In this document: positions 3-60,918 of the stretch, in pieces
Numbering within the stretch: position 1 is the first letter of the stretch
Layout: every line of letters begins with the position of its first letter
NCBI GenBank assembly: GCA_017506865.1
Contig: JAFCMP010000490.1
Span: 776,019 to 840,018, forward strand
Origin: Tribonema minus
Taxonomy: Eukaryota > Sar > Xanthophyceae > Tribonematales > Tribonemataceae
Length of the DNA stretch: 64,000 nt
Reading direction: 5' to 3'
Notes under the pieces: generated by a model
The model's input: the letters and a program-made list of their open reading frames with translations, nothing else
What the model was told of the DNA's origin: nothing
Database searches by the model: none
Translations under genes and position numbers: made by a program

Positions 3-3000
3 CTGCTTGTTGAGCTCCGCCTGCTTCTGCTGGTAGATCTCTGCCTCGCGCGGCGCGCAGTGCTTGCACAGCGTGCCCTCGCCGTCGTCCATGGGCGTCT
101 TGCACGCCATGCACTTGTTCTGCGGGGGCGCAAAAAGACGCGGAAGGTGCCGATGAATGAAGGCTTCTGCCAGTTCAAACTGTCGATGGCGGACTAGGGC
201 GTGTTTCTGTAAGGCAGCGGGCGCTGACGAGCGGCGCGCTTGCAAGCGCCCTGCAGAAGTGAATTTGACGCCACACCGGCACGGGACTTGGCGGCTCTCG
301 CTTGTTTCACCTTTGTACAGACTATCATGCCGCCGCCTGCAATGTGAAGGCCATGCTCCCCTGACCCTGGCCCTGGCCCTGACAGCCACGTGGGCTTGCT
401 CTCACACGAGCGCCATATCAGGACCAACCTGATGCAAATAGACTAGAACCTTGCAAACAGAGCAAACCCTTGGTTCTCACCTTTTTCACTGTCGCAAACA
501 TCACAATGCCGCCCTTGCGCGCGGCGGGCGTCTTCTTCACAACAGTGCGCGTGTGCGCGCCGGCGAGAAGCGTCTGCGGATTCTCGATGATGGGCTCAAA
601 CAGGCGCGTGAGGGGCTTCGCAAGCTGATTGGTCAGGTAGTACCCCGTGTCGATGGGCAGGTTGTTCTCCAGGACGTACACGGGGTCCTCCGATCGCTCG
701 TAAGCGGGGGTCTGAGAGGGGGGTGGGTGGGGGGGGGGGGGGGGGGGGGGGGAAGGGGGGGTGACGGAATCTCGTGCTCCAAACAGATGTGAGTCAGCGG
801 CATCAGCGTATAATGCTTGTTGACAACTGCATGCGCTGATGAACCCTGAGTCAGTGGCAACAGAAGTCAGTAGCTTTGGGCCTGCATATGCGACAGCATC
901 CCTCCCCTCCCCCCTTGCTGACAGTGCTCAGATGGCTTTAAGAAGTCGCAGGTCAGTGACCAGTAGGTAGTACACACACGAAATCTGTTCACGTGAGCAC
1001 AGGAGCGGGCACGTCACCACGCTGCCGAGTATTGCCGCCACACCTTGTGGTGACACCTGCCTCACCATGGCCATGTTGTTGCGACGCTGCCGTGCCCGGC
1101 GATTCAACGTGGACATCGACAGCAGCACCTTGAGTTCATGGCAGCACAGTAGGTTGCCACAAGCGACCCGCCCCCTCCACCATCTCAATGATGCATAGAG
1201 GCATGTCTTGGCACGTCAACTTGAACTTGTAAGGGCAGCAGGGGTCACTGACTCACACCCTTCCCCTCATCGTCATTGACGCAAGGCATGCAGTCGCCAT
1301 AGTTAGAAACAATGTCTGCCACGGCATATGAAATTGACTTCAACAGCATGTCAACTTCAAGTTTGTTGGCAGCGATGTTCATCCCCCTCCCCCTTTCAAA
1401 GGCAACCGAGGGCACGGAATGTCTGTTGCAGCACGACGATTTGAGCCTTTCTAGCACATGCAAGGGAATGCGAACAAGTCCCCCCCTTCCCTTCACAATG
1501 ATGACGTAGTCGAGGCATAGCAATTGCCAGTACCCTTGTGCTGCAGCACGTACCAAAACATGTCAACTACAGCTTTCAGGGTACAGCGGGGGACAAACAA
1601 TACTCACCCCCTTCCCCTTCTCGATGATGACGTAGGGCACGCGGTCGCCCACGTTCGGTGCGGTGCCGGGGTCGCGCCGCCGCATGCGCATCGCCAGCTC
1701 CACGTGCGCCTGAGCATGGCCACGCATCACAATCATGAATTAACCACACGAGCCTGAGCGATGCCATCAATCATGAATGTTGTGAATCTGATTGCATGGG
1801 GAGGGTACAGAGCGCCGTCTCAGTTTGCGGTCTGTAGCACGGACAGCCGTGTCTCAACTCTGCATGCATCGCCAGCTCCGCGTGCGCCTGAGCGATGCGA
1901 TTGCTCACAATCATGAATCAACATCATGAAATCTGCTGATGTCAGGCTCACGTGAGCCTGAGCGGTGCAACTCTGCATGCGCCTGAGCGATGCCACAAAA
2001 GACAATCACAAATGCTCACCGTTAATGCAGTCTGTTGGTTATGCTGTCAGGCGCTATGGCTGTGTGCAGTATGAATTGTGGAGCCCATGACCCAAACTCA
2101 GCATGGCTATCAGCGATGCCACGATTCACAATTAGGAATTATAGTCAAGAATTTACACTTAAGATATGGCATCAGCGGGCTGTCAGATGCCATCGGCGAA
2201 ATCGCGGAAGAGACACGTCTCGCCCCGCATATGCATCGCCAGAGCTCTACATGGGCCATGAATCACAATCACGCATGAACATCACACAGTCATGTCAGCG
2301 AGCCCTACACCTAGGGTTGGCAGCGCGCTGACCTACACCGAGGGTTTGATGCAGCGCTCAACCGCCTGGCAGCGAGCGACACTTCCTGCCTGCGCGCCTT
2401 GCCAGGTTCTTGGTGACAACAACAACAACGCGGTATGTGTCACCGTGCCCTAAACCTAGGGTTAGCATACACAGTGCTCACCTGTTTGGCAGTGTAGCCC
2501 TCCATGTCCGCGCTCTTCGCCAGCGCCTTGGTGATGACCAGCAGCGATATGTCCATGCGGTCCTGTAGCAGCTGTGTGACGCATGAAGAGAGAGGCAGAG
2601 GCAATGAGACACTATGCGTGATGAATAAGGCTTCAGGAAGGTATACAGAGGTGAGAGCGCAGCGCAGACTATACGCAGACACCCGTGGGCATCAGGTGAG
2701 GGCTACAGCTGCAGCGATATGTCCATGCGGTCCTGGAGCAGCTGGTGACGCATGAAGAGAGAAGCAGATGCAATGAGACACTATGCGTGATGAACGAGGC
2801 TTGAGGAAGGTGTACAGTAGTCAGAGAGCGGCGCAGACTATAATAGGGGTGATCGCTGTTGCTTAGGCTGGGCTAATGTCTTCGCAAAACCGCAGACACC
2901 CACAGGCATCAGGTACAAGAGGCACTGTGCGACAGGGGATGCTATCGCTGATGCTCAGGCTTGACCTAGCCTAGCCCTAACCCTCCCCTTAACCCCCCTC

Positions 3001-6000
3001 TCGCAACCAGACTCCCCCATCCAACCCGCCCAGCCCAGTGCTCGCTCAGGTTTGACACGCGGCCTTCGCAAAACTGCAGACTTCTGTGTGTGGATGCTCG
3101 CCACTCCAGACGATGCCCGTCAGTCCGTGCACGCTGGGCAGCAGTTGTGTCTTAGGGTTAGGGTTAGGTATCAATTCATCGCGACATGGTTCTTACACCG
3201 CTTCAGCCTTGAAAAAGTTGTGGTCTGCTGGTGCCTTGTGGGAACCCCAAGAAGCACTTGTGCGACAGCAGCGCTATGTGTAACGATCGCAGAACCTTAT
3301 GCAGCAGATGTTATGCACCGAGTGCATTCACACTTTGAGGGCTGCGCTCTGCAACAGGATTTGTCGCGGTTGCTGACCAGTGAATATACTGTCATATTGG
3401 CCGGCACGTGTAACCAGCACTTGTCTGCGGCGCATCCTGCTTTTGTACACCAAGTACATGTGCACAAGGCACTTAGGTGGGTAGACCACTCTCATAAAGT
3501 ACATACCTGTGATATGACCTCCGGCGAGTACATTCGTGGCGGTTGCCAACAGGCGACAACAACTTCCATCAGTGGCCAGCCCGTATGGTGTCTGTACTGC
3601 ACATTCTCTATATGATACTTCAAGAAGTAGAAGTACAGGGTTTTTCGCCCTTCAAGCGAAAATCAATAAAGTAAATCACTGCGATATGACCTCCTTGGAG
3701 TATGCTATGGCGCCGTCCACGTCTAACGGTATGGTGTCTATGCTGCACACACTCTACACGAGACACCGGTTTTCGCCCGTTAGGCAGAAATAAATAAATG
3801 TACATACCTGAGATATGACCTCCTTGGAGTATGCTATGGCTCAAGCCAAAATACATAGAAGTACATACATACCGAGATGCCATTTGGCGGCGGCGGTGTT
3901 TGAGTGGTTGTCGTTGAGACACTTTCAGACTGTCACACGACAGGTAGATTCCGTACAGCGCGAGCTTCAAGTTAGATGCCATTCATCTGGGCTTTTTCGC
4001 GCCCTGAGCGAGAGTCAATAAAATGTACATACATACTTGTGTGATATGACCTCCTTGGAGTATGCTATGGCGCCATCCACGTCTGACGGTATGGTGCCTA
4101 TACTGCACCGACACTACACGAGACTCGGTTTTTTGCCCTTCAAGCGGAGTACATGTACATACCTGTGATATGACCTCCTTGGAGTATGCTATGGCACAAG
4201 CGAAAATACACAGAAGTACATTCGTTGCGACACTTTCAGACTGTCATACGACATGTAGATCCCTTACAGCTAGATGCCAATCATCTGGGCTTTTTCGCGC
4301 CCTGAGCGATAATTAATAAAAAGTACATTCATACCTGTGATATGACCTCCTTGGAGTATGCTATGGCGCCATCCACGTCCCTGTCGATCAGGATCTTGTG
4401 CAGGCACGTCTCCACCACCTGGGCGCGCGCGAGGAAGCCGTGGCGACAGGTTCGGCAGTTCGCATGAGTCCCCAAATGGAACAACAGAGGACACAAGACA
4501 TGCATTGTACACATACAGCAGTTTGCACTGTACCGTATGCATGTGTTCTTCTAAAGCATTATGTGCAGCAACGTGTCCACCAGTTGTGCGCTCAGTGACG
4601 TGAAGGGGAAGGCGTGATTCATATCCAGATGCAACTCCCATTATGCCAATTTACACTACTGCACGCCTCCACGTCCTGGGCGTGCACGAAGCGACAGTGG
4701 AAGCCGTCCTCGGATGCGGATACAAAAAGTAAAACAGTTGCAGCACATGCTATGTGATAATGCTTGCGTGCTCCGGGGCCTGCAGACTTCAACTTTCTAC
4801 ATCGACAACATGCACGCAGAAAGCAAGTGATGGATTCCGCAGCGCACACCTTGCGCACGAGCATGCAGTTGTCGAGGCACACAGTCCCAGGGCCCTTGGT
4901 GTGCACCTTGTCGAGCTTTCAGCACTTTCTTAGCTAATGCTGGGAAAATGATGGTGACGCTCTCACCTTGCCCAGGAGCATGTTGTCACATAGGCTTACG
5001 TCCTTCAGCATTTTATCGGCAATTGCTGGGAAAATGATGGCAAATTCTAACCTTGCACACCAGCATGCACTTGTCACGGCACGCGATTCAGCATTTATCG
5101 GCAATTGCTTGGAAAATGATGGTTAATTCCGCCACTTTCGCGCGGGCATGCAGTTGTCGCGGCTCACAGTTCAGCATGTTCTCAGCAAATGCTGTTAAAT
5201 TCCGCAGCTCTCACCTTGCGCATGAGCATGCAGTTGTCGTGGCGCACGTTCTCTTCCTTGCAGCATTTTCTCGGCAAACGCTGAGAACATGATGGCGTTG
5301 TCACCTTGCGCACGAGCATTTGTTGCGGCGCACGGTCTCTTGCTTTCAGCATTTTTGCGACAAATGCTGAGAAAACGTTTGTACCTTGCGCACGAGCATT
5401 TACTGGCGACTGCTGGGAAAATGATGGTAAATTCTGCAGCTCCCACCTTGCGCAGCTGTCAAGGCACACAAAATTAGCATTTTTGCAGCAAGTTCTGATG
5501 GGAAGTTTTGCCGCTCTCACCTTGCGCACGAGCATGCAGTTGTCATTGCGCACAGTTTCTTGTTTATCTTGTCATTAACTCAGCATTGCCTCGGCAAATG
5601 TTTGGAAAATTATGGTAATCCGGCTGCTGTCACTTGTCACACGCTGTGGCCCTTGTGTTTCTTTCAGCATTTCCTCCACAAATGCTGAGAAATTGCAGGT
5701 AAATTATTACCTTGCGCACGAGCATGCAGTTATCGCGCCGCACGGTCTCCAGTCCCTTGGTGTCCATTTTGTCACTCTCTGCACCTTTGCAAATGCTAGG
5801 AAAATGATGGTAAATTCTCGGCAAGTTCCGCCGCTCTCACCTTTCGCACGAGCATGTAGTTGTTGCAGCGCCGCATATTCTCGGCAAATGCTGGGAAAAT
5901 GATGGAAAATTCTCACCTTGCGCACGAGCATGCAGTTGTCACACAGCTTTCGGCAAATGCTGAGAACATGATACTTCAAGTTGAAGTAGTAAATTCTCAC

Positions 6001-9000
6001 CTTGCGCACAAGCATGCAGTTGTCACGGCGCACGGTCTCCAGGCCCTTGGTGTCCATCTTGTCATACTTGTCCGGGCGCGTCCACAGCAGCCCCGCGTAG
6101 CGCTTCTTGTTCATGAGCAGGTACGGCCAGTACACCTACAAAACATATGGATGTACATAGAGAATTGACATCATCAGTTACACTCAAACGTCACCAACAA
6201 ATGAACATGTAATTGACAGCCTCTATAGTAACGGATGCACAAGTGATGCATCCAGAGCAGACCTGCGTAGCGCTTCGTGTTCATGAGCAGGTACTGCCAG
6301 TACACCTGCAAACAAATCCACGTACATGGTGTTTCAGCATTTCCAGTAGCACGCACGTTGGCAAACAAATGAAGGGCATGTGATTGGCACATCAATTATT
6401 TGAGGAAGGCATAGAGTAATAGATGAGCAGGCGATGCATCCAGAGCAGCCCCGCATAGCGCATCTTGTTCATCAGCAGGTATGGCCAGTACACCTGCATG
6501 AAAACATATACTTGAAGTATAACATAGGATTCACATAATCGTAAACACATGCACGTCAACAAACAAATGAAGAGCGTGTGATTGGCAAATCAATGAGACA
6601 GAAGTAGAGCAGTGGATGACCAGGCGATGCATCCAGAGCAGCCCTGCGCAGCGCTTCTTGTTCATGAGCAGGTACAGCCAGTACACCTGAACAGGTACAT
6701 ATTTCAATAGAAAATTGGCAAATGGAAAATTAAAACATCACTGACACACGAACGTCAACAAACAAATGAAAAAGGGCATGTGATTGACAAATCAATTGAA
6801 GTATTTGAGGCAGAAGCATCTATAGTAATGGATGCACATGTGATGCGTCCACAGCAGACCCGCGTAGCGCTTCTTATTCATAAGCAGGTACGGCCAGTAC
6901 ACCTGAAGGAATATATGTACATTGTGTTTCAGCATTTCCAGTAGCACGCACGTCGGCAAACAAATGAAGGGCATGTGATTGACAAATCACTTGTTGGAGG
7001 CAGACGCAGCTATAGTAATGGATGCGCAAGTAATGCGTCCAGAGCAGCCTTGCGTAGCGCTTCTTGTTCACGAGCAGGTACGGCCAGTACACCTGCAAGC
7101 ATGTGCATGTTTCAGCATTTCCAGTAGCACACGCACGTTGGCGAACAAAGGAAGGGCATGTGATTGACAAACCAATGATGTGAGGCAGAGGTATCTGGAT
7201 GAGCAGGTGATACGTCCACAGGAGGCCCCGCGGTTTTTCATGAGCAAATATGGCCAGTACACATGCCAAAATAATTGTGCATGGCATTTGTAGAAGACAG
7301 CGTCACTCAACATGCGGATAGTACACGCATGTCAGCAATCAAGTAGAGGGCAAACTAACTCGTTGAGGCAGAAGTAGGCGTGTACCTTCTCAAACTCCAG
7401 CTTGATGGGCCGCGGAAAGATCTTGGAAACTTCCTCGGCGGCCTTCTCCGCCAGTGGCATTGCCTCGGCAACCGTCTTGGTGCCGAACTTCACCATGACG
7501 GAATCAGTATCGCCGTACACAACTTCCGCGTCCGCAGAGTAGCCGTTGGCGATCGTGTACTGGCTTTCCACGTACTCCTTGGTCTTGAACAGCTGCGCGA
7601 GGAGGGGGGGGGTGCAAGCATTTGCTGTGTGAAGATGACGCAGTTGAAGCGTTGAAGTGCAAATCAGAGCGTCAGCTTCTCAGATGTGTACTGGCTCTCC
7701 ACGTACTCCTTGGTCTTGAACAGCTGCGAAACGGGGGGGTGAAAGCGTTTGCAATGTGATTGGATGGCGCTGTTGAAGTGGTGACGTGCGGAGGAGAGCT
7801 GGGTGTGTTGAGCGTCTGCTGCGCGTCGGCAGCGGTCACCAATGAACACAATTCAAGTATTGAAGCACACATGGGAGCGTCATGTTCACAATGGGAGCGT
7901 CATTTTCATATTGTGTACTGGCTCTCCATGTACTCCTTGATGTTGAACAGCTGCGCAAGGGGGGGGGGGGGGGGGCAATGTGATTGGATGGCGCTGTTGA
8001 AGTGGTGACGTGCAGATGAGAGCTGGGTGTGTTGAGCGTCTGCTGCGCATCGGCAGTGTTCAACAATGAGCTGACGCGGTCGAAGTATCGCAGCGCACAT
8101 GGGAGCGTCAACTTCAAACCGTGTACAGGCTCTCCATGAATTCCGTGGTACGCGACAGCAAGGGGGCGGAAGCGGCTCTGTCGGTGTGTTGAAGCGCTTG
8201 AAGTATGGGCACGGAAATGAGGGCTTGATGTGTAGAACGGCGGCATGACAAAGAGGCCAAAATTTGAACTTCTAAAGTTCCCGCCGGGGGTTGAAGTATT
8301 AATCAGGGGGTCGACGACTTTGAGGCTGCAAAGAGAGCTTCTGTCACCGAATGCCTGCGTCCGCAGAGCAGCCACAGCCATGGTGTGTGATGTGATCATT
8401 GCGACTCCGCACGGAAGTGCATGTATGATACTTCATACGATGGCATACGTGACTCTCAGACAAAGGTGTGCTGGTTCCCCAGTGGCCACGCAGACTGTGG
8501 TGCAAACACTGTATCGCGAAACTCAAGGTTACAGACACGATAGTAGGAGTCCTCTTGCTGAGGGCACAATACACGTAGCGGAAAAAGCTCACCAGCTCAC
8601 GCCCGTAGGATGTCACGCTGGATGCGATGGGGAGGCACGGCAGTTGGCCAACGGTGGCGCCGGTGAACCCGTACACAGAGTTGGCGCTGATCTGCGGTTC
8701 ACGGGATGAGCAACATCACAACTTCAAAGACGAAGTGGTTGGCGCTGATCTGCGCGCCAGCGGGCGATTGCGCACTCACGATGTTTCAACTTCAACACGG
8801 CAATGCCTGACTTCAAAGCGGTTGAACGTGATGGTGCACATGCGGTGTGCCGATGCTGGACGCAACGGTAAAGGCGTGGCAGTTGGGCAACGGTGGCAAT
8901 GGTGAATCCGTACACGGAGTTGGCACTGGTCTGCAGCGCAGCGGGCGATCACAAATCGATCGGTGTCACAAACTCAAATTCTGAATATAGACTCCAAGTT

Positions 9001-12000
9001 GATCACTGTTGCACCAGTGGACTGTCAAGGGTCAAGCGACATCACGATGACAACAAGTTGAGGTTGGTTCCAAATTTGTCGCTGCTGGTCGGTGTGCTGA
9101 ATGCGCAACCCATCCGTCATGACGCAGACGAGGAGTGACAGATGTACCACTACGAGCAGCACACGCTGCGCAGCCCACTGGTAGGCTGACTGATCTTGAG
9201 CACCGTTACTGAATTGGCTTTGACACTAAACTTCAACTCTGCCTGCGCCGCAAGTTGTGGCAGCTCTTGGTGGCGCGCACTGAAGTTTATTCTTGCAACT
9301 GCGAACAATACGTAAAGTGTAGTGAGACACTGTGAACTACACGGTAATCTGCCGTTGATGCACGGCACAGTGCGCGTACAGCACGTACATAAAACACCGA
9401 GGAAGTGCGTGAAGGTGGGGGCGACGGACTGGTGGCGTCATCCAAAGTGTATACCTCAATGCGCTCCGCAGTACATATGTACTGCACAGCGCGGCAGGAA
9501 TGCAGTACCGTAAAGTCTATAAATTAAGCCCATGGTGCGACTTTTTTATGAGAGCGAAAAAAGGGGGGTGGGGCGTCATTAATATATGGAGGAAAAAAGG
9601 GTGGGGCGGATTAATAGTTGAGCCATTACGGCTTATCTAACATCGTCATGAAGTGACGGGCATCGCCAGCCTTCCCGCAATCAGCGCATTCGAACCTCCG
9701 GTTCAACTTGCACTTGAAGTGGCGGTTCAAAAAATTTCAAGTGTGACTGATCAGGAGCTGGCGGTAGGCTAAAGCCAAGCAAGCTATGAACAAAGCTTTG
9801 CGTGAGGTACATGAAGGCAAGCAACGCAGCATGCTGGATGTCTCCGCAATTGCCTAGCCGGGCCAATTCGGTCTCCGCAACAGCCTCAGCTCAGCCCCCC
9901 CCCCTGCAACGCAGCAGGTTGTCGTCGTGCAGATAGAGTCTGAAAGCGACGGCGATTATGCTTCTGTGTATTTGCTGCCTGTTTATGTGATTGCTGCCTT
10001 TCTGACTGCTCTGCACGTTGCTGGCAATGGCTGCTTCGCGTTGTTTTATGTGCCCAAATAATGTGGTGATGTAGCATGAGTCACATTTGGATCATCCCTG
10101 CAGCATGCGCATGCGCAGAGGGCACGTTGTGCTGCATATGCATATGCAAGAGGGGGGGGGGGGGGGCATATTTTCATGAGCAAATAAAAAAGGGCGGGGC
10201 ATCATTTTAGGAGGGCTCGGAAACTCATAAAAAAGTCGCCCCATGGGCTTTTTATGGACTTAACGGTACGTGTGGGCACCCCAGTGTCCTAGTAGTATGC
10301 GCCAACACTCTGTACAGTATGTACTACGCAACTCGGCAGGCAAAAAGTACATGCGGGATGGAGATTTCCCGAGATGCCATTTGGCGGCGGCGGCGTTCGA
10401 GTGGTTGTCGTTGAGGCACTTTCAGACTGCCACAGGGCATGTAGATTCCGTACAGCAAGCTTCAAGTTAGATGCCATTCATCTGGGCTTTTTCGCGCCCT
10501 GAGCGAGAATTATTATAGAGTACATGCGGGCAGCGACCGACATCATGGTAATTGATTGCTGACCTCAAGCGCCAGCTCCCTGTTCCTCAGGTACTACTGC
10601 ACCGTTGATGTACAGTTGTGTGCAAGTACATGAAACTGCGCAGGTCAGCAGCAGCCGCAGTACATGCGGGCAGCGGTCTGTGTACTTTTATTATATTCCA
10701 CTTGTGGCTGTGGAAATGCCATGTTGTAGGTGTGTCGCCTTGTTCTCACTCTTGGATGTAGCATGCAAAGCTTGCACGCCACACCCCGCCCCCCACATCA
10801 CCCCCAACAAAGCACCCGCAAGCGACTGTCCTTACATACTAGCAGGGATACCAAACAAAGCTACAAGACTCTCCCCCCACAGACAGACCTACTGCAGTAC
10901 ATACAGCGTATGCACAGCATGTACTGCACAAATCGACAAAAAAAGTCCATACTTGTAGTCGTCATTGAGACACTTTCAGCTCGCCGCATGACACATACAT
11001 TTATGCTACCTCAAAGTTTTCGAAGCACCTCGAAGTATAAGCATTGATGATCGCGGGCAGCGGTCCATGTACCACTGCAGTACAGTGCTTGTAGGTAGGT
11101 GTGCTGCACAAATCGACGCGGAAGTACACACTGCAGATGTACGAGGACTTCGAGGGGTGGGCATGCCATATTGCGACGTCATTTAAAAGTGATCGGCAAT
11201 GCGCCCAGAGACACTTTCAAGGGTATTCATATAAACACATGTAGATTCTGGTTGCGAGTCCAGGGACATCCACCATCTGGGCTCTTTCACGCCCTGAGCG
11301 AGCATGAAAGAAGTACATACTTGCGGTGTCTGATTGACTCACCTTGAGTGCCAGCTGCCTGCCGTTCTGCACGGCGTACTCCATGGGGTCAGTAGCGAGC
11401 GCCATGTCTTTCTTTGCGCGCTGTTGCAACAATAGGGAAGGAAGGGCAGTGGCACACAAAACAGGTGAGGCAGCTGTGCTTCAGATGACTTGAAGTTGAA
11501 CGTAAACTGCATACATGCCTACCTTTCGTGCCGCGAGCTGCTCGTCCAGGATAACAGGCAACAGGCAACTGTACTCTATACTTCAGTACTTCAATACCTT
11601 GAAGCAAACAAATGAGCTGAAGTTTGAGTTGAACTGCATAGTCTACATGCCTACCTTTCGCGCCGCCAGCAGCTCGTCCAGGACAACAAGCAACGGGCAA
11701 CTATACACAAGTAGTTTGAAGTACAAGTACTCCATACATATTGATAAAAAAATCAGAAGTTCTTCATAACTCTTGGACTTTTAAGTAGATATATCATGTA
11801 AGTTCAAGCTGAACTGCATACATGCCTACCTTCCGTGCCGCGAGCAGCTCGTCCACAACAACAGGTAACGGGCGACTGTACTCAAAAACTTCAGTGCTTT
11901 GGAGTCAACCAGTGCCTTGAAGTTCAAATTGAACTGCAACTTTACTACTTTTCGTGCCGCCAGCAGTCCAGGATGACGGGCAGCATGCCTTGTATTCAAA

Positions 12001-15000
12001 TACTTCAGTACTTGAATACTTTGATGAAAAAACTGATGAGTTGAAATTCAAGTTGAACCGCATACATACATACCTTTCGTGCCGCCAGCAGCTCGTCCAG
12101 GATGACAGGCAACAGGCAACTGTACTCAATACTTCAGTACTTCAAAACCTTGAAGTAAACAGATGACTGAAGTGCAAGATGGACTGCATACATGCATACC
12201 TTTTGTACCGCGAGCAGCTCGTCCAGAATGACAGGTAACGGGCAAGATAACGGGCAACTGTAGTCAAATACTTCAGTAGTTTGAGAAGTAAACAAACGAC
12301 ATGATATTCAAGTTGAACTGCATACATGCATACCTTTCGTGCAAGCAGCTCGTCCAGGACGACAGGCAGCATGCCCTGGTACTCAAATACAGTACTTGAA
12401 TGTTTTGTTTGAAGAAAACGGATGAGTTGAAGTTCAAGCTGAACTGCATACATGCCTACCTTTCGTGCCGCGAGCAGCTCGTCCAGGATGACGGGCAGCA
12501 CGCCCTTGTGCACCTCGGCCCTCACAAACACATCCCCGGAGGGGCTGGTCTGGTACTGGTCGGCGCTGAGGGACGCCAGCTGCAGCAGCGCACAGCAGAA
12601 TTGCGGAATCTGATTGGGCCATGTCATTACTGTGATAGGCAGATTGTGTGCGGTTGTTTTGAGAGCGGTGCTGCCCTTGGCAGTTCCGGCCAGAAAGGCG
12701 GAATGTGGTGCTCGCAGTGACGTCGGGACAGCGAAGGTACTGGTCAGCGCTGAGGGACGCCAGCTGCGGCAGCGCACAGCAAGTTTGAGGCATCTGATTG
12801 GGCAATGTCGTCACTGCGATGGGCAGATAGTGTGCAGCCTTTTGGAGCGGGCTGTTGCCTTTGCTGATTCTGGTCAGAGAGGCAGACCATGGTGCTCAAA
12901 GTGACATCAGGAAACCAAATCGCCAGCTGCGGTAAACATTGACGAGGCCTCTGACATTGGAGCACGGAATTGGCCTGCCTCTGAATGAATGCAGATTTCA
13001 ACTTGTACACCCGTCAAAGTGGGAGCTGAAGGCGAAATTTGAACAACAGGCAAGGGAAAAATCCAAATGGCCTGGAACTTCAAAGTGCCAGCCCGGACAC
13101 CCAGAGCCTTCCTGGTGTACACACGATGTTCGACAGCGCATTGTTGAAGTGCGCTGGCAACTGCCACAGCGCTCGCGGTAGCGCGGACCCATGCCGATAT
13201 GCGCGCTTTGTTCAAAAGCACGGCCAGGTAATCGAACACGTGGCACTCGACACTTGGCACTCGCTTCCCCTCTCTCAACCCCTTTGGCTAATTCCTAGTT
13301 TTTGGGTGCCATTTGTGTGCCAAAATTGCCAAGTCGATTCTGAGCTCGGACGGCAACTGTCTCAGCGTTCGCACTCGCGTGCAGAGCCGTGGTGACATGC
13401 ATACGTACATACACTATTTCAAATTCTATTTGATAGCGCGCGCGCAGGTGGGGGGGGGGGGGGGCGGCTACTCACGCGGAACCGCGGTCATGTGCGCACC
13501 CTGTCAAAAAGTGCGGTTCTGAGCTAGGCCTGCGACTGCCGCATATATACACCATTTGATTTGATAGCGTTGGGGAGGGGGCTACTCACATCGTCCTTGT
13601 GCACCAGCGTGGAGTAGCAGAGGTTGTACGCCTGCATGATGGACGGGTACAGACTCGCAAAGTCGAGAGTTGCAATGGGCTCCGTGTAGTACGCCTGGGT
13701 GGGGGGGTGGGGTACAGAAAAGGGGGGGGGGGGGGTTGAAGGGAATCATAAGTGATTGGTAAAGTACAATTGAACACAGGGGCGCAGCATTGCGGGCTGC
13801 AAAGTGACTGGTACTGTTGAACACAGGGGCGCAGCATTGCTGGCTGCATGTCACCAGAGCATCCACACGAAAGCACTAGGCTGAATTGAAAGTAGGCATC
13901 CAGCGCGCACTGTCAGTCAAGCGCATGGGATGGAGCTGATCGAGAAAATGCTCTTCGAGGCAAGTTGTTCTCTCAGAATGACACTTGCTGACATCTAAAG
14001 CACCGTACTCCAACGACATACAAGAGAAGGAGAAGCTGGACGTTTTGAAACGAGAAGCTGCGCCTTGCTTTGTCCAATGATGGCAGACATGTCATCACGC
14101 CTTCCTCGACCACCTCCACATGCTCCAGAGTGCCTGAGGGAACTGCATGGCGTCAACGCGTTTGAAAGAATTGAAAGTAAAGAAGCGCTGTTGTCATTGT
14201 GCAACACTTCTCGAAAATTGAGGAAACTGTATGGCTCAAATGCATCCAAACATACTGGAAGTGCAGAAGCGCTGCTGTCATTCTGCATTTTTTTCTTGAA
14301 TACTTCAACTTCACCTTATTTGGATCGATGACGGTTGCATCAATGCATGTCAAAGCAGCGGAAGAACAGAAGCGCTGCCGTCATTGCAATCACTTCTAGA
14401 ATACTTGAAGTACTTCAACTTCACCTTCTTCGGATCGATGACGGTGGCGCCACTTCTTGAATACTGAGGGTACTGCATGGCTCCGACGCATCTGAAAGTA
14501 ATGGAAGTGCAGAAGCACTGCTGTCATTGCAATTACTTCTTGAGTACTTGAAGTAGTAGAAAAAATTGAAGTACTTCGAATTATATTTCAACTTCACCTT
14601 CTTGGGATCGATGACGGTGGCGCCTTCGTAGCCCTCCTGGTCCGCCCCGTGCTTCGCCAGATTGGGTATGAGCAGGTTCTCTGTCTTGCACTTGCGCAAA
14701 AGCATGCTGTACACCTGCGTGACAAATGAATGACGGCATGGCAGCAGGTCACAACTGTCATTATATGCGGGCAAGGGCGAGCTTAGATGACGCGCCACAC
14801 ACAACGGCAGTATGCCACTCATGCTGTGTCATCTCATGTTCCCAGGGCAGCACATTACCTATCAGAGCAACACGCTGCGCAAGTTGCAAAACTCGTCAAT
14901 TGCGGCCAACGGTCCAGGCAAAGGCGCGCTGTGCGGACGCAGTTGCAGCGAGCGGCGGCATGAGCAGCAGCGCTCTGCGGCAAGATTCGCAGTGCGCATG

Positions 15001-28571: not shown

Positions 28572-28572
<1 letters not shown>

Positions 28573-28609
<37 letters not shown>

Positions 28610-28685
28610 CTGAGCCTGAGCTTTGCGGTCGATGTTCTGGTCGCGTGGAATGCAATCGTGACGTACATGACTAGGGCTGTACGTT

Positions 28686-28771
<86 letters not shown>
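28573..28771. repeat. Two GA microsatellites flanked by a repeated unit
   Basis: (GA)n at 28573-28604 and 28689-28771. A unit containing GGAATGCAATCGTGAC and ATGACTAGGGCT adjoins them (near 28647 and 28818), recurs near 28900 and once more near 29205. This is probably an exon-edge array for the missing first coding exon of polymerase delta. Confidence 0.75.
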
Positions 28772-28772
<1 letters not shown>

Positions 28773-28971
28773 CAGTGGCCTGAGCCTGCGCTTCCCGGTT
28801 GATGCTCTCGTTGCGTGGAATGCAATCGTGACATAGATGACTAGGGCTATATGTTCCACGTGCCTGAACCTGTGCTTCCCGGTCGGTGTTCTGGTTGTGT
28901 GGAATGCAATCGTAAAGTCGATGACTAGGGCTGTATGGTTCCATATCGTTATCTGCGGCGTGCAAGCCCAT

Positions 28972-37341: not shown

Positions 37342-37379
<38 letters not shown>

Positions 37380-44160: not shown

Positions 44161-47100
44161 CTAGAGCCTGGCGTGGGGCGCCTTGAACTGAGCCTCCGTC
44201 ACGCCCTCGCCCATGGCGGACGTGGAGGATATGCCGCCGGTCGCCAGCCTCACCTGCCGATACCATTTTTGGAGGGGGAGGGAGAGGGGGGAGAGGGGGT
44301 GGTAAGGGGGTGGGGTGGGCAGTTGAACAAGGGCTGCATAGCGCGTCACATGCTGCAGCATGGCGACGGAAGGGGAGGGTGAGGGGGGGTGGGGAGGGAT
44401 CGTAGCAGGGCTGCAAAGCATCGTCTGCTGCAGAATGCCAGTCCGTTGCACGCACCAAAACAGCTAGTCCCAGCATGGCTCTGAACTTTGATTTGTGATG
44501 GTGCATGAGCGTAGCTGCACGTTAAAAGTGTCAGACAGTTCAGGAAACCACAAATGCGCCCGACCAGCGCTGGTGCACCTCCAAAGCAAATCTAACGTCC
44601 AGGGGCAGATGATACATGCGTTGATGCTCCATATGTATACGGCAGTCCAGCGCTGATGCACCTCCAAATCTGGCATTTAAGGTACTTTCATGACACATCT
44701 GGAGTACATTTATAAATACATACACACATACCTGCGGTCCATGAGGTCGGCGCCCGACCAGCGCTGATGCTACCAAAAATGGTCATGACACGTACGATAC
44801 ACTCCTAAAGACCTACATATAAGCTGCACTTCCAGGTCTTGCATGTAAGGTACGACAATTTTAGTCAGCTAGCTACATACATACATACATAGCTGACGGT
44901 CCATGGATCGGCGCCCGACCAGCCCGTACTTCCAAATCCGGCATCGAGAGGTGTGATACCTGATACTTACACGTGAATACACATTAAGAGTGAATACACA
45001 ACCAGTGTGTGTCAGTTAGGCCGTAGGTACTTTCATGACACATTTGGACTACATGTAGAAGTATACATACATATCTGGCAACTAATGAGGTCGGCGCCTG
45101 ACCAGCACTTACCTCCAAATCCGGCATTAACATGTGTGAAACCTTCATATTTGCACTTGGACACAAGTAAATGCTGGAAGTCCAGCGTTTAGGGGTGCAT
45201 TTAGTCAGTTACGTACTGACATACATACATACCTGGCGGTCCATGAGGTCGGCGCCCGACCAGCGCTGGTGCGTAAGCAAGTCCACCTGCTCCGCCCTCT
45301 CCTGGCGCTGCACGAGGTCCACGTACTTGATGATGCCGTGCTGGCCGTACTCCTGTTGAAGTTCACATTGAAGATCACAGCGACAAGAGGGAGGCAGACT
45401 GTCAGAGCTTGAGCGAATGCGCTGCGTTGCATGTGCTGCTGCAATGAACACCTACAGGCGATTGTACTGGGCGCTGCACGATGAGAGTGTACGCAGGCAT
45501 GCTACGCGTTCTGAGCAGGTGTTTGTGTGCACAATGTCATATGCTGAGCGGCGTGATGAGGCACAGCAGCGCTCGCCCTGGCAACGCTGGATGGGCGTGC
45601 GTACTTGGCAATACATGTGCAGTCCTACACAGTAGGCTGAGCACTGTAATGGGGCATAGCAGCACTGACCCTCGAAAGGTGCACACTGACAAGGCCATTG
45701 CTACAGAAGGTATAGTCTAGCATTTCGAGAAAGAACTTCGCAATACATGGTGAGCAAATTCATGCGCAGTCGTATGCGGTTTGCTGAGCAGTGTAGTGGG
45801 GCGCAGTGTAGCGGGATGCATCAGCGCTCACCCTCGAGAGGCGCGCAGTGATGAGGCCGTCGGCGTGGAAGCCCGCCAGTGTGATGAACTGGAAGACATA
45901 GCCCAGCTGGCCGAGGTCGCGGTTGAAGGACGCCATCTGCGCCTCCGTCATGCCCGCCTGATGAAGCGAATGAGTCAGTGAGTGAGTCAGTCAAGTCAGT
46001 GAGTGAGGGAGTATGTCAGTGAATAGGGTTGTGTTAACGAACGCCATCTGCGCCTGAAGAAGCGAGCGAGCCACACTTGCTCACTGAAGCGAGCGAGTCA
46101 GTCAGTGAGTGAGTCGGTAAGGGTTGAGTTGAGGATGCCATCTGCGGCTCCGCATGCCAGTCTGGTCAAGCGAGCGAGTCTGTGAGTAAGTGAGTAAATT
46201 GGGTGAGCAGGGCGACTTGAAGGGCGTCATCTGCGTGTCCGCCTGATGAAGTCAGCGAGTGAGCGAGTGAGTGGATTGAGTTGGGTTGAGCTGAAGGACG
46301 CCATCCATTTGACATACGTGACTTGCCAAACTCAGCTCACACAACACAAACTACTGCAACACCACTAACCGAGCCCCAATCTAGGGAGGGGCGACATGCT
46401 GCAGGAGCGCAATTGAAGCGGAAACTCCCCATAAATTCTGCTGATGTGCTTACTTCAGAGTAGTAGTTACTTCAACAGTATACTTTAAGTACGTTGAAAC
46501 AAGCACACTGAGCAGCGCCACTCACAAGAGTCCCAGTCGAAGGAGGGGGACAGGATGCACGCGAGCATCTGGTGAGGGACCGGTGTGAACTCCGTCAATG
46601 TGCTAACTTCAAGGGTAGTGGGTACTTCAACAGCATACTTCAGGTATGCACATAGAAATAAGCACCATTGCACGCAACTTACCGAGTCCCAGGTAAAGGA
46701 AGAAGACATGTTGTAGACAAGTATCTGGTGGGGGAATGCCTCGTGCACGCCGTCGATCAAATATAGTAGTTACTTCAAGTATGTTGAAAAAAGCACCATT
46801 TGAACACAACTCCAAGTATGTTGGAAAAAGCACCACTTGAACGCAACTCACCGAGTCCAGTTGAAGGACGGGGACAGGTTGTAGACGAGCATCTGGCGGG
46901 GGAACGCCTCGTGCACTCCGTTGACAAGTGGTTATGTCAATTTTGAGATACTTCAACAGTATACTTCAAGTACATACACAGCCCACTTGAAGCCAACAAG
47001 CACTTAAACGCAACTCACCGAGTCCCAGTTGAAGGAGGGGGACAGGTTGTAGGCGAGCATCTGGCGGGGGAACGCCTCGTGCACGCCGTCGATCAAATGC

Positions 47101-50100
47101 AATAGGTACTTCAACTGTATACTTCAAGTACATAGAAACAAGCTCAAACTCACCGAGTCCCAATTGAAGGAGGGGGACAGGTTGTAGGCGAGCATCTGGC
47201 GGGGGAATGCCTCGTGCACGCCGTGCGCAAACTGGCGCGCCTCCTCCAGGATGGGCTTGGCAGTCTCCATCCACAGCAGATCCGCGTGCGGAGCAAAGGC
47301 CCTGAGGGGGGGTGAGCAAAGCCCAACGAGTGAGCGCCAGAGCAGATAGACAAGGGGATCCTTGGGTGACTGATGTCCGATAACCATGCGTGGATGCAAC
47401 ATCTGATCTCCGATAATGTGGGCCTGGCAGAGGGACAGGGTATCAAAGCACAGACTACAGAAAAAACGAAACATTCGTTTGTAGCGCTGCAATCTCAGAC
47501 ATCCAACAAGTAATCAGCACGGAAACCTCAAACGCGCGCTCTAACTGTATGTGCCACCGCAGATCGTGCTGCTCTCCCCCCCGACCTAACCTGCGGCTTT
47601 CCTGCGCTCAGCGCGCTCACTGCAAGTTGTTCACTTCAACTTGAAGATGAACAAACCTGACGTGCGTCACGCAGTAGTCCACGCCGCCACGGACCATGTG
47701 CTCACTTCGCCTTGGCTTTGAATAGAATGACATGCAAGCCTGCTCGCCTCGCCTGCCCGCCTCAACTGATGTTTGAACCTAATGGTAACTTTAACTTGAC
47801 AATGGAGCACCTGGCGCGCGCCATGCAGTAGTCCACACCGCCGCGGACCTTGTAGTAGACCACTTCAACTTGATGTTGACAATGATTAACTTCAACAAAA
47901 TGATTAACTTCAACAGCGGAGTGTACCTGGCACGCGCCACGCAGTAGTCCACGCCGCCGCGGACCTTGTAGTAAACCACTTCAACTTGATGTTGACAATG
48001 ATAAACTTCAACAAAATGATTGACTTCAACAGCGGAGCATACCTGGCGCGCGCCACGCAGTAGTCCACGCCGCCGCGGACCTTGTAGTAGCCCTCCCTGG
48101 AGCGCGGCGCCTCCCAGTCAAAGTGAGGCAGCTTGGCGGGGCCACCCAGGAGCTGCGCAGCAAGGGCCCTGAAAAATGAAGAAAAAAGCTATTAGTATGC
48201 AATCATGAGTTCAACCGTTGTACACCGTCTTTCTTCCTTCGAAAATGCCGTGGGCCTCTTTGAAAGGCCTTGCGTTAAGTCAAGCAACAAAAGCTCCTTG
48301 CTGCAGCAGACACCGCGCCACGACTCAGCATTGGGCACAGCTGCACTGCGACAAAACCGAGGCAGCAGTTGACCGCAAGTGCGGCATCTGAAGTCAACAG
48401 CGTGTATGGCGTGAGAATGCAAGAGGCTGTGTTTATATTCGTCGGTAGAGCTGGTCCATGATTTGCTTTCTGCCGTAACCAGTGGGAGTGATAGCAGCAG
48501 AATGCTGGCTCGCCAAGATTGAAGGCCCTGCAATGACCAAGATGGAGGGCCTGCATGCGCCAGCAGCACACAACAACTCCAGCCGCGGGCTAACGACTAC
48601 TCAAGCTTGCCTATGTACGTGCCTGTTGAAGAATGAGCCGGCGACGTGTGCTGCGATCAGTAGCAGGTCAACGGTACTCTGTACCGGAGCCATGGTGAAG
48701 GCGAGCACCATAACGCCCACTTCATCGCGCGCGCATTCTCACAACTTTTTTGGGCCACAACTTCAAGTTCAAGATCAGGTTCAGGAGACACAGTGAGCGC
48801 CGAGATGCCTCACCTGGCCTGGTCGTGGCCGAGCGTGTAGGCCTTGCTGGCCCAGTGCTTGAGGCGCGTCTGGGCGTCCGGCAGGCCGGAGCACTCAATG
48901 GCGCGGGCCACGGCCTGGCGTAGCAAGCAGGGGTGATTGACGCGCGTGTCAGCTACATGTAGCTGCACATAGCTAGGATGGTCGCAATGGGCAGTTGCAC
49001 GTGATTCCTAGAACTGTACTAGGTACAGGATAACTGTACCAAGTACAGTAGCACTGGCGGGCCACGGCCTGGCGTAGCAAGCAAGGGCGATTGATGCGCG
49101 TGTCAGCTACATGTAGCTGTGTTGGCGGCAGATGACTATCATGGTTGCAGCCGGCAGTTGCACATGAAAATGGTACTAGAACTGACAGGCCGTCGCCTGG
49201 CGGAGGAGCAAGGGGGGTTGACTGATAATACGCGGGCGACGGCCTGGCGTAGCAAGCAGGGGTAATTGATGCGCGTGTCAGCTGTGTTGGCGGCACATAG
49301 CTATGGTGGTGACAACCGGCAGTTGCGCACGTTTGTTCAAACTGATGCTACAACTGACAGGCCGTGGCCTGGTGGATGAGCAAGGGGGGATTGACTCATA
49401 TAGTTAGCTACGACGATGACGGCGGCGACCGGCAGTGCCGATGCGTCCAAACGCATGCAAAATGCTAAGCACACCAATCGAGGGTCTGCCACGCAGAAAT
49501 AGCTGTGCCGTGTATGCACAGCTATAATGGCGGTGACTGGCGGGTGAGGTTACTACCGTGAAAGCTGGGGTTAGGGTTGGATAGCGCTGACGCATGCACC
49601 ACCCGCCCGCGTTGAAGAGGCGCGCGATATGAAACGATGCGATACGATACGATGCACCTGAGCACTGCTGGCGCACTTGACAAAAGAGCACATTGGCCCT
49701 TTCCAGAACGCATTACGAGCGGACCAGCATACCCTTATTGGCAGGATAGATCGCAGCAACGTTCTGTCATGATGACTCCCAGCAGAAAGCTGCTGGCACT
49801 GGGGCCATGGCGTACTGACGCTTCTGCAGGATGAAGCGCTTCAGAAGCTGGGGTCACGGCGCACTCACGTCCCCCACTTCGCAGCGGGCGCGCGATACGA
49901 TGCAACTGAGCGCTGCTGCTGCACTCACCTCGGGGTAGCGCATCAGTCCGGCGCTGGCGGTCCACTCCTTGGCAATGTCGTTCACCTTGTCCGCGCTGGC
50001 GCCGGCGGCAGCAGCAGCGCTCATCACCTCGTTGACGGGCCTGCGTGATGACCAAGTTGAAGATGGAGTGCGAGAATCAGCTGCGCAACACGGGGATGCT

Positions 50101-53100
50101 GCAGAGTCCGACGCATGCAGTTGATGTGTTGGTGGCGCCGAGGATGGAGAGGTGGTCGCGTGGTTCAGTCTGGCTGTTTAAGCAGCGAGGCGACCTCGGC
50201 GTAAACTTCAAGTCACACACTTCAAGTCTTCCAAAGCACAACTTCACCTGAGGTTGGGGTTGGTGGCGCCGAGAATGAAGGGGTGGTCGCGCGGGTCGAT
50301 GTTGCTGTCCAGCAGCGAGGCGGCCTCGGCGTCGGTGCGCGCCACGATGACCGTGTCCGTGCCCATGATGTCCGCCTGCAGGCGCGCCGCCACCAGCCTG
50401 TCGCAGTGCTCCTGCATGCTCACCAGCACCTGCAACGGGCGGCGCAGCGGCGGAGGCGGAGTTAGTTAGCGGCACGTACGAGAATGAAAGTAAGAGTAGC
50501 AACAAAGTGGCAGCGGCGTGACGCAGTGCTCCGGCGCAGCGGCGAAGACGGAGTAAGTTTGTAGCGCGTACGAGAATGATCATGATAGTACCGACGAAGT
50601 GGCAGCGGCCTGTCGCAGTGCTCCTGCATGCTCACCAGCACCTGCGACGGACGGCGCAGCAGTGCGCAGCGGAGGCGAAGGGAGTTGGTGGCGCCTATGA
50701 GAAATCATAACAATGATACTTCTAGGAGCGACGGAAGTGGAGGCGCTCGCGTACGCAAACGAGGGCATTTCAAATCAGACGCCGGCGGACGCGCTCTTGC
50801 ACGTCGGCAAAACGTGCGCCACAGCCGACCTCACGCTGAAAAGCAGCACCGGGTTTCGAAGCGAAAGTCCTCCGCGTATCCCCAGACGAGTCCGCCACCG
50901 CCGCCTACACCTGCAGGCACGGAGGTTCTGAAAGCGTCTTTTATGCACACTGCAGCAGCGCTCGACTCCGCGTCATCAGCGCTCTACGCCGCAAGCATCC
51001 TGCCGTCCACGAGCCCGCACGCGCCCGCGCGTGCTGACCCCGCCCTTCGCGCGTGCAAAACACGTGCGTTCCGATCACGCCCGCTGAGCGCGCGCCGTGC
51101 GACCGGCAGCAGCGCTCAGGCGACGAAGCGGGGCGGCGCGCGACGCCGATAAATTCGAGCCGTCGCCGCGCGGTGCACAACATGTGAATCACCATGCCAT
51201 ATGATACCATTTATTCGCATGTGCGATACCCCTGTAACACGCACCATGTCTAGTTACTGCAGGCTGTAGAGCACAACAAAGTCTGCGCTCCGCTCCGAGC
51301 GTACCTTGCCGCCCATGTGGCCGCACTTCAAGCTATTGCCACATGCTGCACGACACCCAGATCACCGTACCATATGCTGACATATGCAATACACGCGCGG
51401 CCCACGTGGACGCACTTCGAGCTTGTTGCCACACGCCGCACAGCATCTAGACCGCCGTGCCATCCGCTGACGTACTTCTACGCAATACGCCATGCGCTGC
51501 AAGACATCTGAAAAACCATGCCGTACGCTGACATGCGCGACACGCGTGGCGCAGCGAACCTTGCCGCCCATGTGGCCGCACCTCAAGCCGTTGAGACGCG
51601 CTGCACGACATCTGGATCACCGTACTACCATTTGCTGACACACAACGTCTTCCTGCAATGTGTCAATGTCAACGCCAAATCCATCCAGAAGTGGATCATT
51701 CTCAATGTTTGGATTACCACCAGGACTTCCATGCGATACGCGCGCGGCGCGGCGCACCTTGCCGCCCATGTGCCCGCACTTCAAGCCCGTTGACACGTGC
51801 TGCACGGCATCTGAATCACTGTGCCATATGCTGACATAAGCAATATGCCACGCGCTGCAAGACATCTGAAACACCGTGCCATACCCTAACATACACGATA
51901 CGCGCGGCGCGGCGCACCTTGCCGCCCATGTGCCCACACTTCTTGGTGCCGGGCTTCTGGTCCTCAAAGTGTATGCCCGCGGCGCCCGCCTCCACAAACA
52001 TCTTGGTGAGCTTCATGACAGCCGTGAGGCCGCCGTGGCCCGTGTCGCCGTCCGCGACCATGGGCCGCAGGTAGTCCACGGGCGCGCCCGCCGCGGCGCG
52101 CTCTGCGGGCGTCATGCGCTGGCGCTCCTCCCTCTGCGTGAGCGGCAGCGTGCACGGCTCAATGTGAGATGAAACTCTGGGTGCAATACGTCTTTGGCCG
52201 ATGATTGTCAACAGCAGGTGAGACAACGGGCGCACCCGCCGCGGCGTGCTCCGCGGCCGTCATGCGCTGGCGCTCCTCCCTCTGCAATGCGGCGCACACA
52301 GCAACGGCAAACTGGCAAGTTGGTCTTGGGTCAAGGCCAGAGGGGTGTGCGTGTGTGTGCGGTGGCGGGGTTCTCAATATTGAAGTTTGGGTGCAGGTAG
52401 TCCACGGGCGCACCCGCCGCGGCGCGCTCTGCGGGCGCCATGCGCTGGCGCTCCTCCCTCTGCGTTAAGAGCGGCAAGTCTATGTTGCGTCAGATGGTAG
52501 CGCTGTTGGGATTGAAGGTTTAGAAGGCAGGCGCCTCATAAGTGCCACTCTCGTCTTTGGCGAGTAACCATTAAAAAGTAACAGGAATTACGCACCAAGG
52601 AACCATAGGCGCAAGAATGGTCGACGGGCGCGCCCGTAGTGGCGCGCTCCGCGGGCATCATGCGCTAACGTTCCTCCCTTTGCATTAAGAGGCGGCATGT
52701 CTGTGTGTGTGGACGATAGCGCTCTTGGACATGAAGGTTCAGAGGGGGGGGCGCCTGATTAGTAAGTGCTCAACGCGACATGTAGCTCTTGGTGCAATGC
52801 ACAACTTTGGCCGATGCTAGTCAGCAGGGACCCCGTCAGGGGCGTGCTGTATGTGTCTCTGCACCACAATGAAATGAATGGAAGTACAAGGACAGCTTTG
52901 GCGCAAGGAGTACATGACCGCAGAGCGAACTGTGAGCTCATGAATGCGCGTTGCGCAAATCGCACACACTTCTAAGACGTGTCTGAGCGTCAACTTCAAG
53001 TTGCAGTCTGCACGCTGCAAAGCAAAGCGGGGCATGCATACATATCCATACGTACCTGGCGGCGGTCGTGGTGGCGCTGGGCGCGGAAGAGCTGGTCCAC

Positions 53101-60900: not shown

Positions 60901-60918
60901 GGACGTAGGGGAGGATCC

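What the first reader, a model, noticed from the sequence alone, without database searches (positions are those of the whole stretch)
1240..54660. Introns built from tandem, degenerate copies of their own exon edges
In three unrelated genes on both strands most introns hold 1-12 copies of the adjoining exon's end. Each copy includes the splice donor or acceptor and a matching piece of intron, always in host orientation and always next to the parent exon. No copy keeps both exon ends, so none is a usable cassette exon. The units have typical periods of 80-190 bp. This is not a known transposon pattern, and the intron length of these genes is largely explained by it. It suggests a recurrent local duplication process centred on exon-intron junctions, or selection for many decoy splice sites. 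I know of no named system with this architecture.
Basis: seen in the sequence. Interest (0 to 1): 0.93.

Follow-up and report, generated by a model that had tools for sequence, protein, structure and literature searches.

The report
Introns grown from exon-edge copies
In this yellow-green alga many introns contain repeated, decaying copies of the edge of the neighbouring exon, apparently because short stretches of DNA straddling the exon border keep being duplicated into the intron, which points to an unusual way for introns to get longer.

Summary
In DNA polymerase delta, isocitrate lyase and ferroportin, 30 of 41 introns and 41 of 82 exon edges carry copies of the adjoining edge (107 copies; 114 sense hits, 1 antisense). 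None of 53 repeat families holds a whole modelled exon. The same geometry recurs at 12 of 14 other loci (92 correctly placed copies, 2 misplaced, 1 antisense). The genome is Tribonema minus. Copies decay neutrally. No shared mobile element was found. Planted purely intronic duplications are detectable, yet real ones are scarce. Young duplications favour exon edges: 15 of 40 young pairs in the window and 9 of 10 elsewhere, against 6-10% in a neutral simulation. Best reading: recurrent short duplication at exon-intron borders, tolerated because half-exons are skipped. Selection for decoys is not supported. Why edges are preferred is unexplained. The unit event has a single-gene precedent (potato, PMC4974935); no genome-wide form appeared in the paper listings seen.

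The parts
6001..6135 (-). POLD1 exon with donor-edge copies on one side and acceptor-edge copies on the other; parent of two arrays
4834..6064 (-). donor-edge array of exon 6001-6135 (9 copies above threshold, units of about 83-86 bp in parts)
6078..7266 (-). acceptor-edge array of exon 6001-6135 (6 copies, unit about 190 bp)
7552..8149 (-). acceptor-edge copies of exon 7386-7592
3494..4379 (-). donor-edge array of exon 4335-4418 (5 copies); a dispersed repeat of about 160 bp also lies inside it
11482..12509 (-). donor-edge array of exon 12460-12579 (7 copies, unit about 126 bp)
15882..16451 (-). donor-edge array of exon 16374-16515 (4 copies, unit about 164 bp)
17112..18167 (-). donor-edge array of exon 18059-18266 (4 copies, exon part up to 109 bp); the gap 17969-18051 is degenerate telomeric repeat
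18194..18402 (-). acceptor-edge copy of exon 18059-18266 (73 exon bp + 4 intron bp, 94% identical, 55-bp gap)
23670..23975 (-). young donor-edge copy of exon 23857-23990 (119 exon bp + 3 intron bp, 96% identical; 62-bp filler with one genomic match, itself)
24691..25020 (-). donor-edge copies of exon 24981-25298
26333..26667 (-). donor-edge copies of exon 26623-26701
32800..33455 (+). ferroportin: acceptor-edge array of exon 33412-33535 (4 copies, unit about 130 bp)
35577..36408 (+). ferroportin: acceptor-edge array of exon 36348-36495 (5 copies reaching the edge)
31828..32428 (+). ferroportin: donor-edge copies of exon 31721-31890 (3 copies)
46444..47224 (-). isocitrate lyase: donor-edge array of exon 47154-47301 (5 copies, unit about 168 bp)
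47630..48093 (-). isocitrate lyase: donor-edge copies of exon 48043-48168; the youngest pair is a gapless tandem (95%, 116-bp period)
52057..52827 (-). isocitrate lyase: acceptor-edge copies of exon 51918-52133 (3 copies)
51298..51942 (-). isocitrate lyase: donor-edge copies of exon 51918-52133 (3 copies)

Best explanation
Introns of Tribonema minus have lengthened by recurrent short direct duplications. A segment A (35-133 bp in most of the 24 high-identity pairs) starts inside an exon and ends in the adjoining intron, or the reverse for acceptors, and is copied into that intron. Close pairs are mostly separated by unrelated sequence B (37-143 bp), giving A-B-A'-C; some pairs are gapless tandems. 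The true exon stays intact because changes inside exons are purged. The copy then decays without constraint. Shown: geometry, orientation, unrepeated B, neutral decay, occurrence at many loci, excess at exon edges. Inferred: the events are end-joining repair of breaks or staggered nicks with fill-in; existing copies are duplicated again to make arrays; copies are tolerated because splicing uses exon definition, so a half-exon with one splice site is not recognised; edges are favoured by breakage linked to transcription, chromatin or splicing.
For: 107 edge-reaching copies, 1 antisense hit. 71 Pfam exon hits at 14 other loci: 43 copies of the 5' part upstream, 49 of the 3' part downstream, 2 on the wrong side, 1 antisense. 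Symmetric junction probes: 89 alignments span the junction, 4 are exon-only, 21 intron-only, no reverse-complement hit for 82 probes. Young copies separated by non-homologous sequence; the one filler tested has one genomic match, itself. Neutral decay by codon position. Planted purely intronic duplications were recovered 119, 119, 107 and 81 times of 120 at d = 0.03, 0.06, 0.09, 0.12, and exon-edge ones 119, 120, 119, 114. Young exon-edge pairs 15 against 7 pure-intron pairs at 15.5% target share, and 9 against 1 at 20%. A transcriptome protein joins 8 ICL exons; 4 of the 7 introns it crosses hold edge copies. No copies at edges of very short exons, as expected if tolerance rests on exon definition.
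Against: A label-only simulation gives a similar copy number without any edge preference if ancestral introns were short. Pairs within one array are not independent, and the sequence-level simulation uses parameters I chose. At d = 0.12 intronic pairs are missed more often than edge pairs. Intron length regresses on copy number with an intercept of 756 bp, so much length is not tied to visible copies. No ancestral (empty) allele or related genome was available, so B cannot be told from original intron, nor direction proved. Telomeric repeats did not associate with copy ends (3 observed, 2.1 expected). I saw no microhomology by eye at the young joins. Stop-codon edges carried 1 weak hit in 8 usable cases, too few to separate 'exon-hot' from 'junction-hot' (p = 0.12 computed for 1 of 9).
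Confidence: 0.65

Rival explanations
1. Duplications fall at random along transcribed DNA; purifying selection removes those inside exons or holding a whole exon. Because ancestral introns were short relative to the duplicated unit, most survivors happen to span an exon edge.
For: Label simulation from 60-200 bp introns gives means of 3.6-7.7 (gapless) or 1.6-3.1 (with filler) edge copies per ~1-kb intron; observed 107 in 41 introns, 2.6 each. It explains why copies include the splice site and none holds both ends.
Against: A sequence-level simulation through the same pipeline gives an exon share of families of 0.23-0.65 (observed 42 of 51) and of young pairs of 0.06-0.10 (observed 15 of 40 in the window, 9 of 10 elsewhere). 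Planted intronic pairs are mostly recovered. The 11 copy-free introns of the window have a median of 645 bp, not 60-200 bp.
Confidence: 0.22
2. Short RNA fragments spanning splice sites (for example protected by snRNPs) are reverse-transcribed at a nearby break, so the inserted piece is centred on a junction and always in gene orientation.
For: Junction-centred, sense, cis-located copies; intron parts often short (33 alignments with exon part >=22 and intron part <22, 5 the other way, 51 with both >=22). Repair templated by transcripts has been described in human cells (PMC12065846, start of abstract in listing).
Against: Ordinary DNA duplication gives the same orientation and position; exon parts reach 119 bp; gapless tandem pairs exist. 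The exon/intron length asymmetry is at least partly a detection effect.
Confidence: 0.08
3. The copies are kept by selection as decoy or spare splice sites that regulate splicing.
For: GT is kept in 44 of 56 donor copies and AG in 25 of 30 acceptor copies whose alignment reaches the exon's outermost base.
Against: Retention is about that of the neighbouring exon-derived bases; substitutions show no coding constraint on the copy and 24 of 97 copies carry indels.
Confidence: 0.04
4. Mobile element (Introner-like) insertions with long target-site duplications.
For: A-B-A' looks like insertion of B with duplication of A. A dispersed repeat of about 160 bp does lie inside the array at 3494-4379.
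Against: The one filler searched genome-wide matches only itself. Of the window, 23 segments (5,559 bp) match elsewhere in the 248 kb compared; apart from the dispersed repeat and telomeric blocks none is an edge-copy unit.
Confidence: 0.03
5. Assembly artefact.
For: Tandem repeats are prone to misassembly.
Against: Copies differ from their parents by about 8.5% at codon positions 1 and 2, with indels and unrepeated gaps; the pattern recurs on independent contigs.
Confidence: 0.02

Closest known systems
Tandem duplication across an intron-exon boundary in the potato RdRp gene (PMC4974935; abstract read)
   Same: The duplicated segment crosses an existing intron-exon boundary and carries its splice signals.
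   Different: One event in one gene, and it made a new intron. Here the events are recurrent, at half of the edges examined in three genes, and they lengthen existing introns.
[quoted passage not shown] passages read)
   Same: Short local direct duplication with splice-site sequence in the unit.
   Different: That model duplicates exonic DNA and creates an intron whose ends match the exon on the far side (the placement is my inference from the model); here each copy lies beside its own parent edge and no new intron is seen.
Introners (PMC9860276; two passages read)
   Same: Repeated intron-building process within one genome.
   Different: Introners are copies of one element; here the repeated part is the host exon edge and no shared filler was found.
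Direct repeats near intron splice sites (PMC11782384; abstract read)
   Same: Direct repeats at exon-intron borders read as traces of break repair.
   Different: Those are repeats of 4-30 bp (mean 11.4 bp) found by comparing the two borders of an intron; here copies of one border, tens to over 100 bp long, in arrays.
Interstitial telomeric repeats inserted at break repair (PMC2246262, PMC7215372; listing and start of abstract only)
   Same: Short TTAGGG blocks sit inside introns here and two gaps between copies (17969-18051, 18271-18325) are wholly or partly telomeric.
   Different: No significant link between the blocks and copy ends.

Membership tests
Tandem duplication spanning an exon-intron boundary | Direct, local copy whose unit crosses an existing splice junction | tested here: met
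   89 of 114 junction-probe alignments span the junction, no reverse-complement hit for 82 probes
Tandem duplication spanning an exon-intron boundary | Copies adjoin head to tail without filler | tested here: inconclusive
   Some pairs are gapless or nearly so (window 47809-48089; L015 5116; L011 3145), but most high-identity pairs listed have unrepeated sequence between them
Intron gain by AGGT tandem duplication | Intron 5' end copies the downstream exon and 3' end copies the upstream exon | tested here: not met
   5'-part copies downstream of their own exon: 0 (33 hits) and 1 (38 hits); 3'-part copies upstream: 1 and 0; in the window the copies found lie beside their own parent edge, the cross placement was not probed separately there
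Introner / transposon | One element family at many sites | tested here: not met
   One filler searched genome-wide matches only itself; window against 248 kb shows no shared edge-copy unit apart from a dispersed repeat inside one array and telomeric blocks
Cassette or mutually exclusive exon duplication | Duplicated exon keeps both splice sites | tested here: not met
   0 of 53 families hold a whole modelled exon
Coding or functional exon copies | Differences concentrated at third codon positions well beyond 2:1 | tested here: not met
   8.7, 8.4, 16.5% at positions 1, 2, 3 over 97 POLD1 and ICL copies
Telomerase-assisted break repair (interstitial telomeric repeats) | Telomeric repeats located at the joins | tested here: not met
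   3 of 19 intronic blocks within 12 bp of a copy end, 2.1 expected, p 0.36
Exon-definition tolerance | Copies are skipped in mRNA | tested here: inconclusive
   One transcriptome protein joins 8 ICL exons correctly across 7 introns, 4 of them with copies; no RNA-seq available

The most novel reading that the evidence does not exclude
Exon-intron borders are themselves mutational hot spots in this genome: a transcription- or splicing-linked process repeatedly duplicates DNA centred on splice junctions, and this, rather than transposons, is a main way its introns lengthen.
Probability: 0.4. Interest if true: 0.87.

Novelty: new variant of a known kind. Interest (0 to 1): 0.7.

Why it matters
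How introns lengthen is usually put down to transposons and random repeats (general knowledge, not from a call). Here about 43% of intron length in three genes lies between a junction and its farthest self-derived exon-edge copy, leaving dozens of near-consensus decoy splice sites next to the real ones. That makes a natural test of how the spliceosome picks the right site, and of whether exon borders are fragile. It may also mislead annotation: the predicted POLD1 protein P0001 lacks the exon at 8593-8691 that encodes [11 protein letters not shown].

Tried and rejected
A first ab initio exon finder gave wrong frames and was dropped. Telomerase filler: proposed after seeing telomeric gaps at 17969-18051 and 18271-18325, dropped. 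Splice-anchored breakpoints: intron parts look short, but part of this follows from detecting copies by their exon part; left open. Stop-codon control: 1 weak hit among 8 usable stop edges (L031 left out as uncertain; the Fisher test, p = 0.12, was run as 1 of 9 against 14 of 32 internal CCT donor edges); three start edges gave none, the ferroportin one being uncertain. Random loci L020-L029 were fetched as an intergenic control but could not be sorted into genic and intergenic, so they are not used as such. Inside the window, 2 families lie outside the gene models and may belong to unmodelled first exons of POLD1.

Rows dropped or doubtful: 3 of 27 MCM rows were left out (two adjacent partial copies and one with 3 stops), as were the polymerase rows outside C516 and C520; two rows kept are doubtful, C445:350204-350290 (probably itself a copy; it gave the one misplaced hit of that call and one of the correctly placed ones) and C156:44995-45216 (a stop inside). 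In one search, 18 of 56 CCT rows were left out (16 on loci not fetched, 2 partial copies beside a better hit). One search left out ferroportin copies. Searches used a fixed score threshold and 1.5-kb flanks, and Pfam hit ends rather than exact edges. Of the 7 'pure' young pairs, two touch or nearly touch an exon edge and one lies inside an array, so 7 is generous to the rival.

Papers: in the listings no title or abstract start that was shown describes this pattern; only the listed rows were seen, and only open-licence PubMed Central papers are searched.

Full report
WHAT WAS CHECKED. The window is the right end of contig C490 of a 158.18-Mb, 554-contig genome. A CCT-eta protein pieced together from another contig matched a protein named Tribonema minus at 97% identity, on a contig of 1,106,895 bases, exactly the length of C235. 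So this is the yellow-green alga Tribonema minus. The three genes are DNA polymerase delta (POLD1, minus strand), ferroportin (plus strand) and isocitrate lyase (ICL, minus strand). Exon edges come from spliced alignment to homologues. Eight ICL exons are also matched by a transcriptome-derived protein of 99% identity (species not named). Ferroportin used a guide that I assembled by hand, with one frame shift in its alignment; its outer ends are uncertain, though all 9 exons are open in one frame.

THE COPIES. Each exon edge (up to 60 bp) was searched in the adjoining intron at a threshold above 40 dinucleotide shuffles of that intron. Over 41 introns there were 114 sense hits and 1 antisense hit; 107 reach within 5 bp of the edge. 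Copies occur at 41 of 82 edges (22 of 41 donors, 19 of 41 acceptors) and in 30 of 41 introns. Spacing has a median of 161 bp, with none below 67 bp. Introns with copies average 1158 bp, without 618 bp; the stretch from the junction to the farthest copy makes up 43% of intron length, and length regresses on copy number at 98 bp per copy with an intercept of 756 bp. Fifty-three local direct-repeat families were found in the window: 37 span a junction, 5 more touch an exon, 9 are intron-only, 2 lie outside the models; none contains a whole modelled exon. With exons masked, 24 of 39 intron families are still exon-derived and 8 abut a junction, so the pattern does not depend on the frozen parent.

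ELSEWHERE IN THE GENOME. Seventy-one Pfam exon hits of MCM, family-B polymerase and CCT genes at 14 loci were tested without any splice model, in flanks of 1.5 kb. Copies of the 5' part lie upstream (43) and of the 3' part downstream (49); 2 lie on the wrong side and 1 is antisense. Twelve of 14 loci have at least one; at L018 and L033 the evidence is slight (one copy at 69% identity; two of 21-23 bp). One hit used, C445:350204-350290, is probably itself a copy and gave one of the two misplaced ones. Genes differ: edge counts across the three window genes and six CCT loci are heterogeneous (chi-square p = 0.005), though the two sets were scored in slightly different ways.

ANATOMY. High-identity pairs usually read A-B-A'-C: for example 119 exon bases plus GTA, 62 bases of filler, then a 96% copy (23670-23975). 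In close pairs the gap is 37-143 bp and not repeated; longer gaps in the list mostly hold further, weaker copies; a minority of pairs are gapless tandems. The one filler tested matches only itself in the genome (that search skips very common words). Of the window, 23 segments (5,559 bp) match elsewhere in the 248 kb compared: a dispersed repeat of about 160 bp (which also sits inside the array at 3494-4379), telomeric blocks, the FCP pair, and some short or low-complexity stretches. Hence no mobile family was found behind the copies. Junction-spanning probes found 89 alignments across the junction, 4 exon-only and 21 intron-only, with no reverse-complement hit for 82 probes.

COPIES ARE NEUTRAL. 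Across 97 POLD1 and ICL copies, differences from the parent are 8.7, 8.4 and 16.5% at codon positions 1, 2 and 3, and 24 copies carry indels. Unconstrained copies of a parent held fixed at positions 1 and 2 predict just this. Splice dinucleotides persist in 44 of 56 donor and 25 of 30 acceptor copies whose alignment reaches the exon's outermost base, about as other exon-derived bases, so there is no sign of selection for or against them.

IS THE EDGE PREFERENCE REAL? Two simulations disagree in part and both are told. A label-only model of random duplication with exon protection gives 3.6-7.7 (gapless) or 1.6-3.1 (with filler) copies per intron if introns began at 60-200 bp, against 2.6 observed. 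A sequence-level model with parameters of my choosing, run through the same BLAST pipeline, does not reproduce the young events: the exon-edge share of young pairs is 0.06-0.10 in simulation, against 15 of 40 in the window and 9 of 10 in 41 introns of the other loci; the share of families is 0.23-0.65, against 42 of 51. Against purely intronic segments of equal size the young excess is 15 to 7 at 15.5% target share (p = 4e-8) and 9 to 1 at 20% (p = 5e-6); pairs in one array are not independent, so these p-values are too small. Planted intronic duplications are recovered 119, 119, 107 and 81 times in 120 at d = 0.03, 0.06, 0.09 and 0.12, and exon-edge ones 119, 120, 119 and 114 times, so missed intronic pairs can account for only a small part of the difference.

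MECHANISM. Best supported: recurrent short duplication at exon-intron borders, probably end-joining of breaks or staggered nicks with fill-in (inferred from the gaps and clean joins). Copies are kept because a half-exon with one splice site is not read as an exon (inferred; consistent with the ICL transcript protein, which crosses 7 introns of which 4 hold copies, and with the absence of copies at exons of 66 bp or less, 0 of 10 against 41 of 72 edges). Why borders are favoured is unknown. Stop-codon edges (1 weak hit in 8 usable) are too few to tell whether exons in general or splice junctions in particular are prone.

COMPARISON. The nearest published event I saw is a single potato duplication across an intron-exon boundary (PMC4974935, abstract read). 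[quoted passage not shown] Introners (PMC9860276, two passages read) need a shared element, not found. In the listings nothing shown describes arrays of exon edges inside introns; subscription papers were not covered, and only listed rows were seen.

Noticed in passing
window 3152-32717 (16 blocks by one pattern; 19 intronic blocks by another): Interstitial TTAGGG/CCCTAA repeats are far above chance (106 dimers against 0.1 expected in the window); all 16 blocks lie within POLD1 or ferroportin introns; not tied to copy ends.
   Followed up: partly
window 3869-4057, 4222-4328, 10367-10525, 60910-61069, with weaker matches at 11182-11346 and 32598-32700; also L012 and L017: A dispersed repeat of about 160 bp, 75-97% identical between the copies listed; possibly a SINE or MITE (the guess is by eye).
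   Followed up: no
window and 19 fetched loci, 248.5 kb pooled: The near-palindromic words TACTTCAAGT and TACTTGAAGT are enriched (30 and 23 occurrences against 0.36 expected each); their place relative to introns was not tested.
   Followed up: no
window 40476-42883 and 57544-59985: Two inverted paralogous genes, light-harvesting (FCP) by eye, 78-84% identical over several stretches, with no edge-copy family found in their region.
   Followed up: partly
window 61166-63926: Long frames with a weak reverse transcriptase match (RVT_1, 17.7 bits, below the 29.6 cut-off), probably a retroelement.
   Followed up: no
P0001 and window 8593-8691: The predicted POLD1 protein lacks the exon encoding [11 protein letters not shown] and holds other residues there instead; decoys may mislead annotation.
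   Followed up: yes
L001-L008 (C21, C112, C181, C223, C90, C179): Several family-B DNA polymerase matches lie in long uninterrupted frames (304-985 aa), unlike the intron-rich host gene; possibly of viral origin, not examined.
   Followed up: no
L013 and L032 against L012, L016, L017, L034: Some multi-exon genes have no edge copies at the exons tested while others have many; the cause is unknown.
   Followed up: partly
window 27653-28367 and 28574-29234: Two further repeat families beyond the modelled POLD1 exons; the first overlaps frames that may be POLD1's N-terminal exons, so these may be more edge copies.
   Followed up: no
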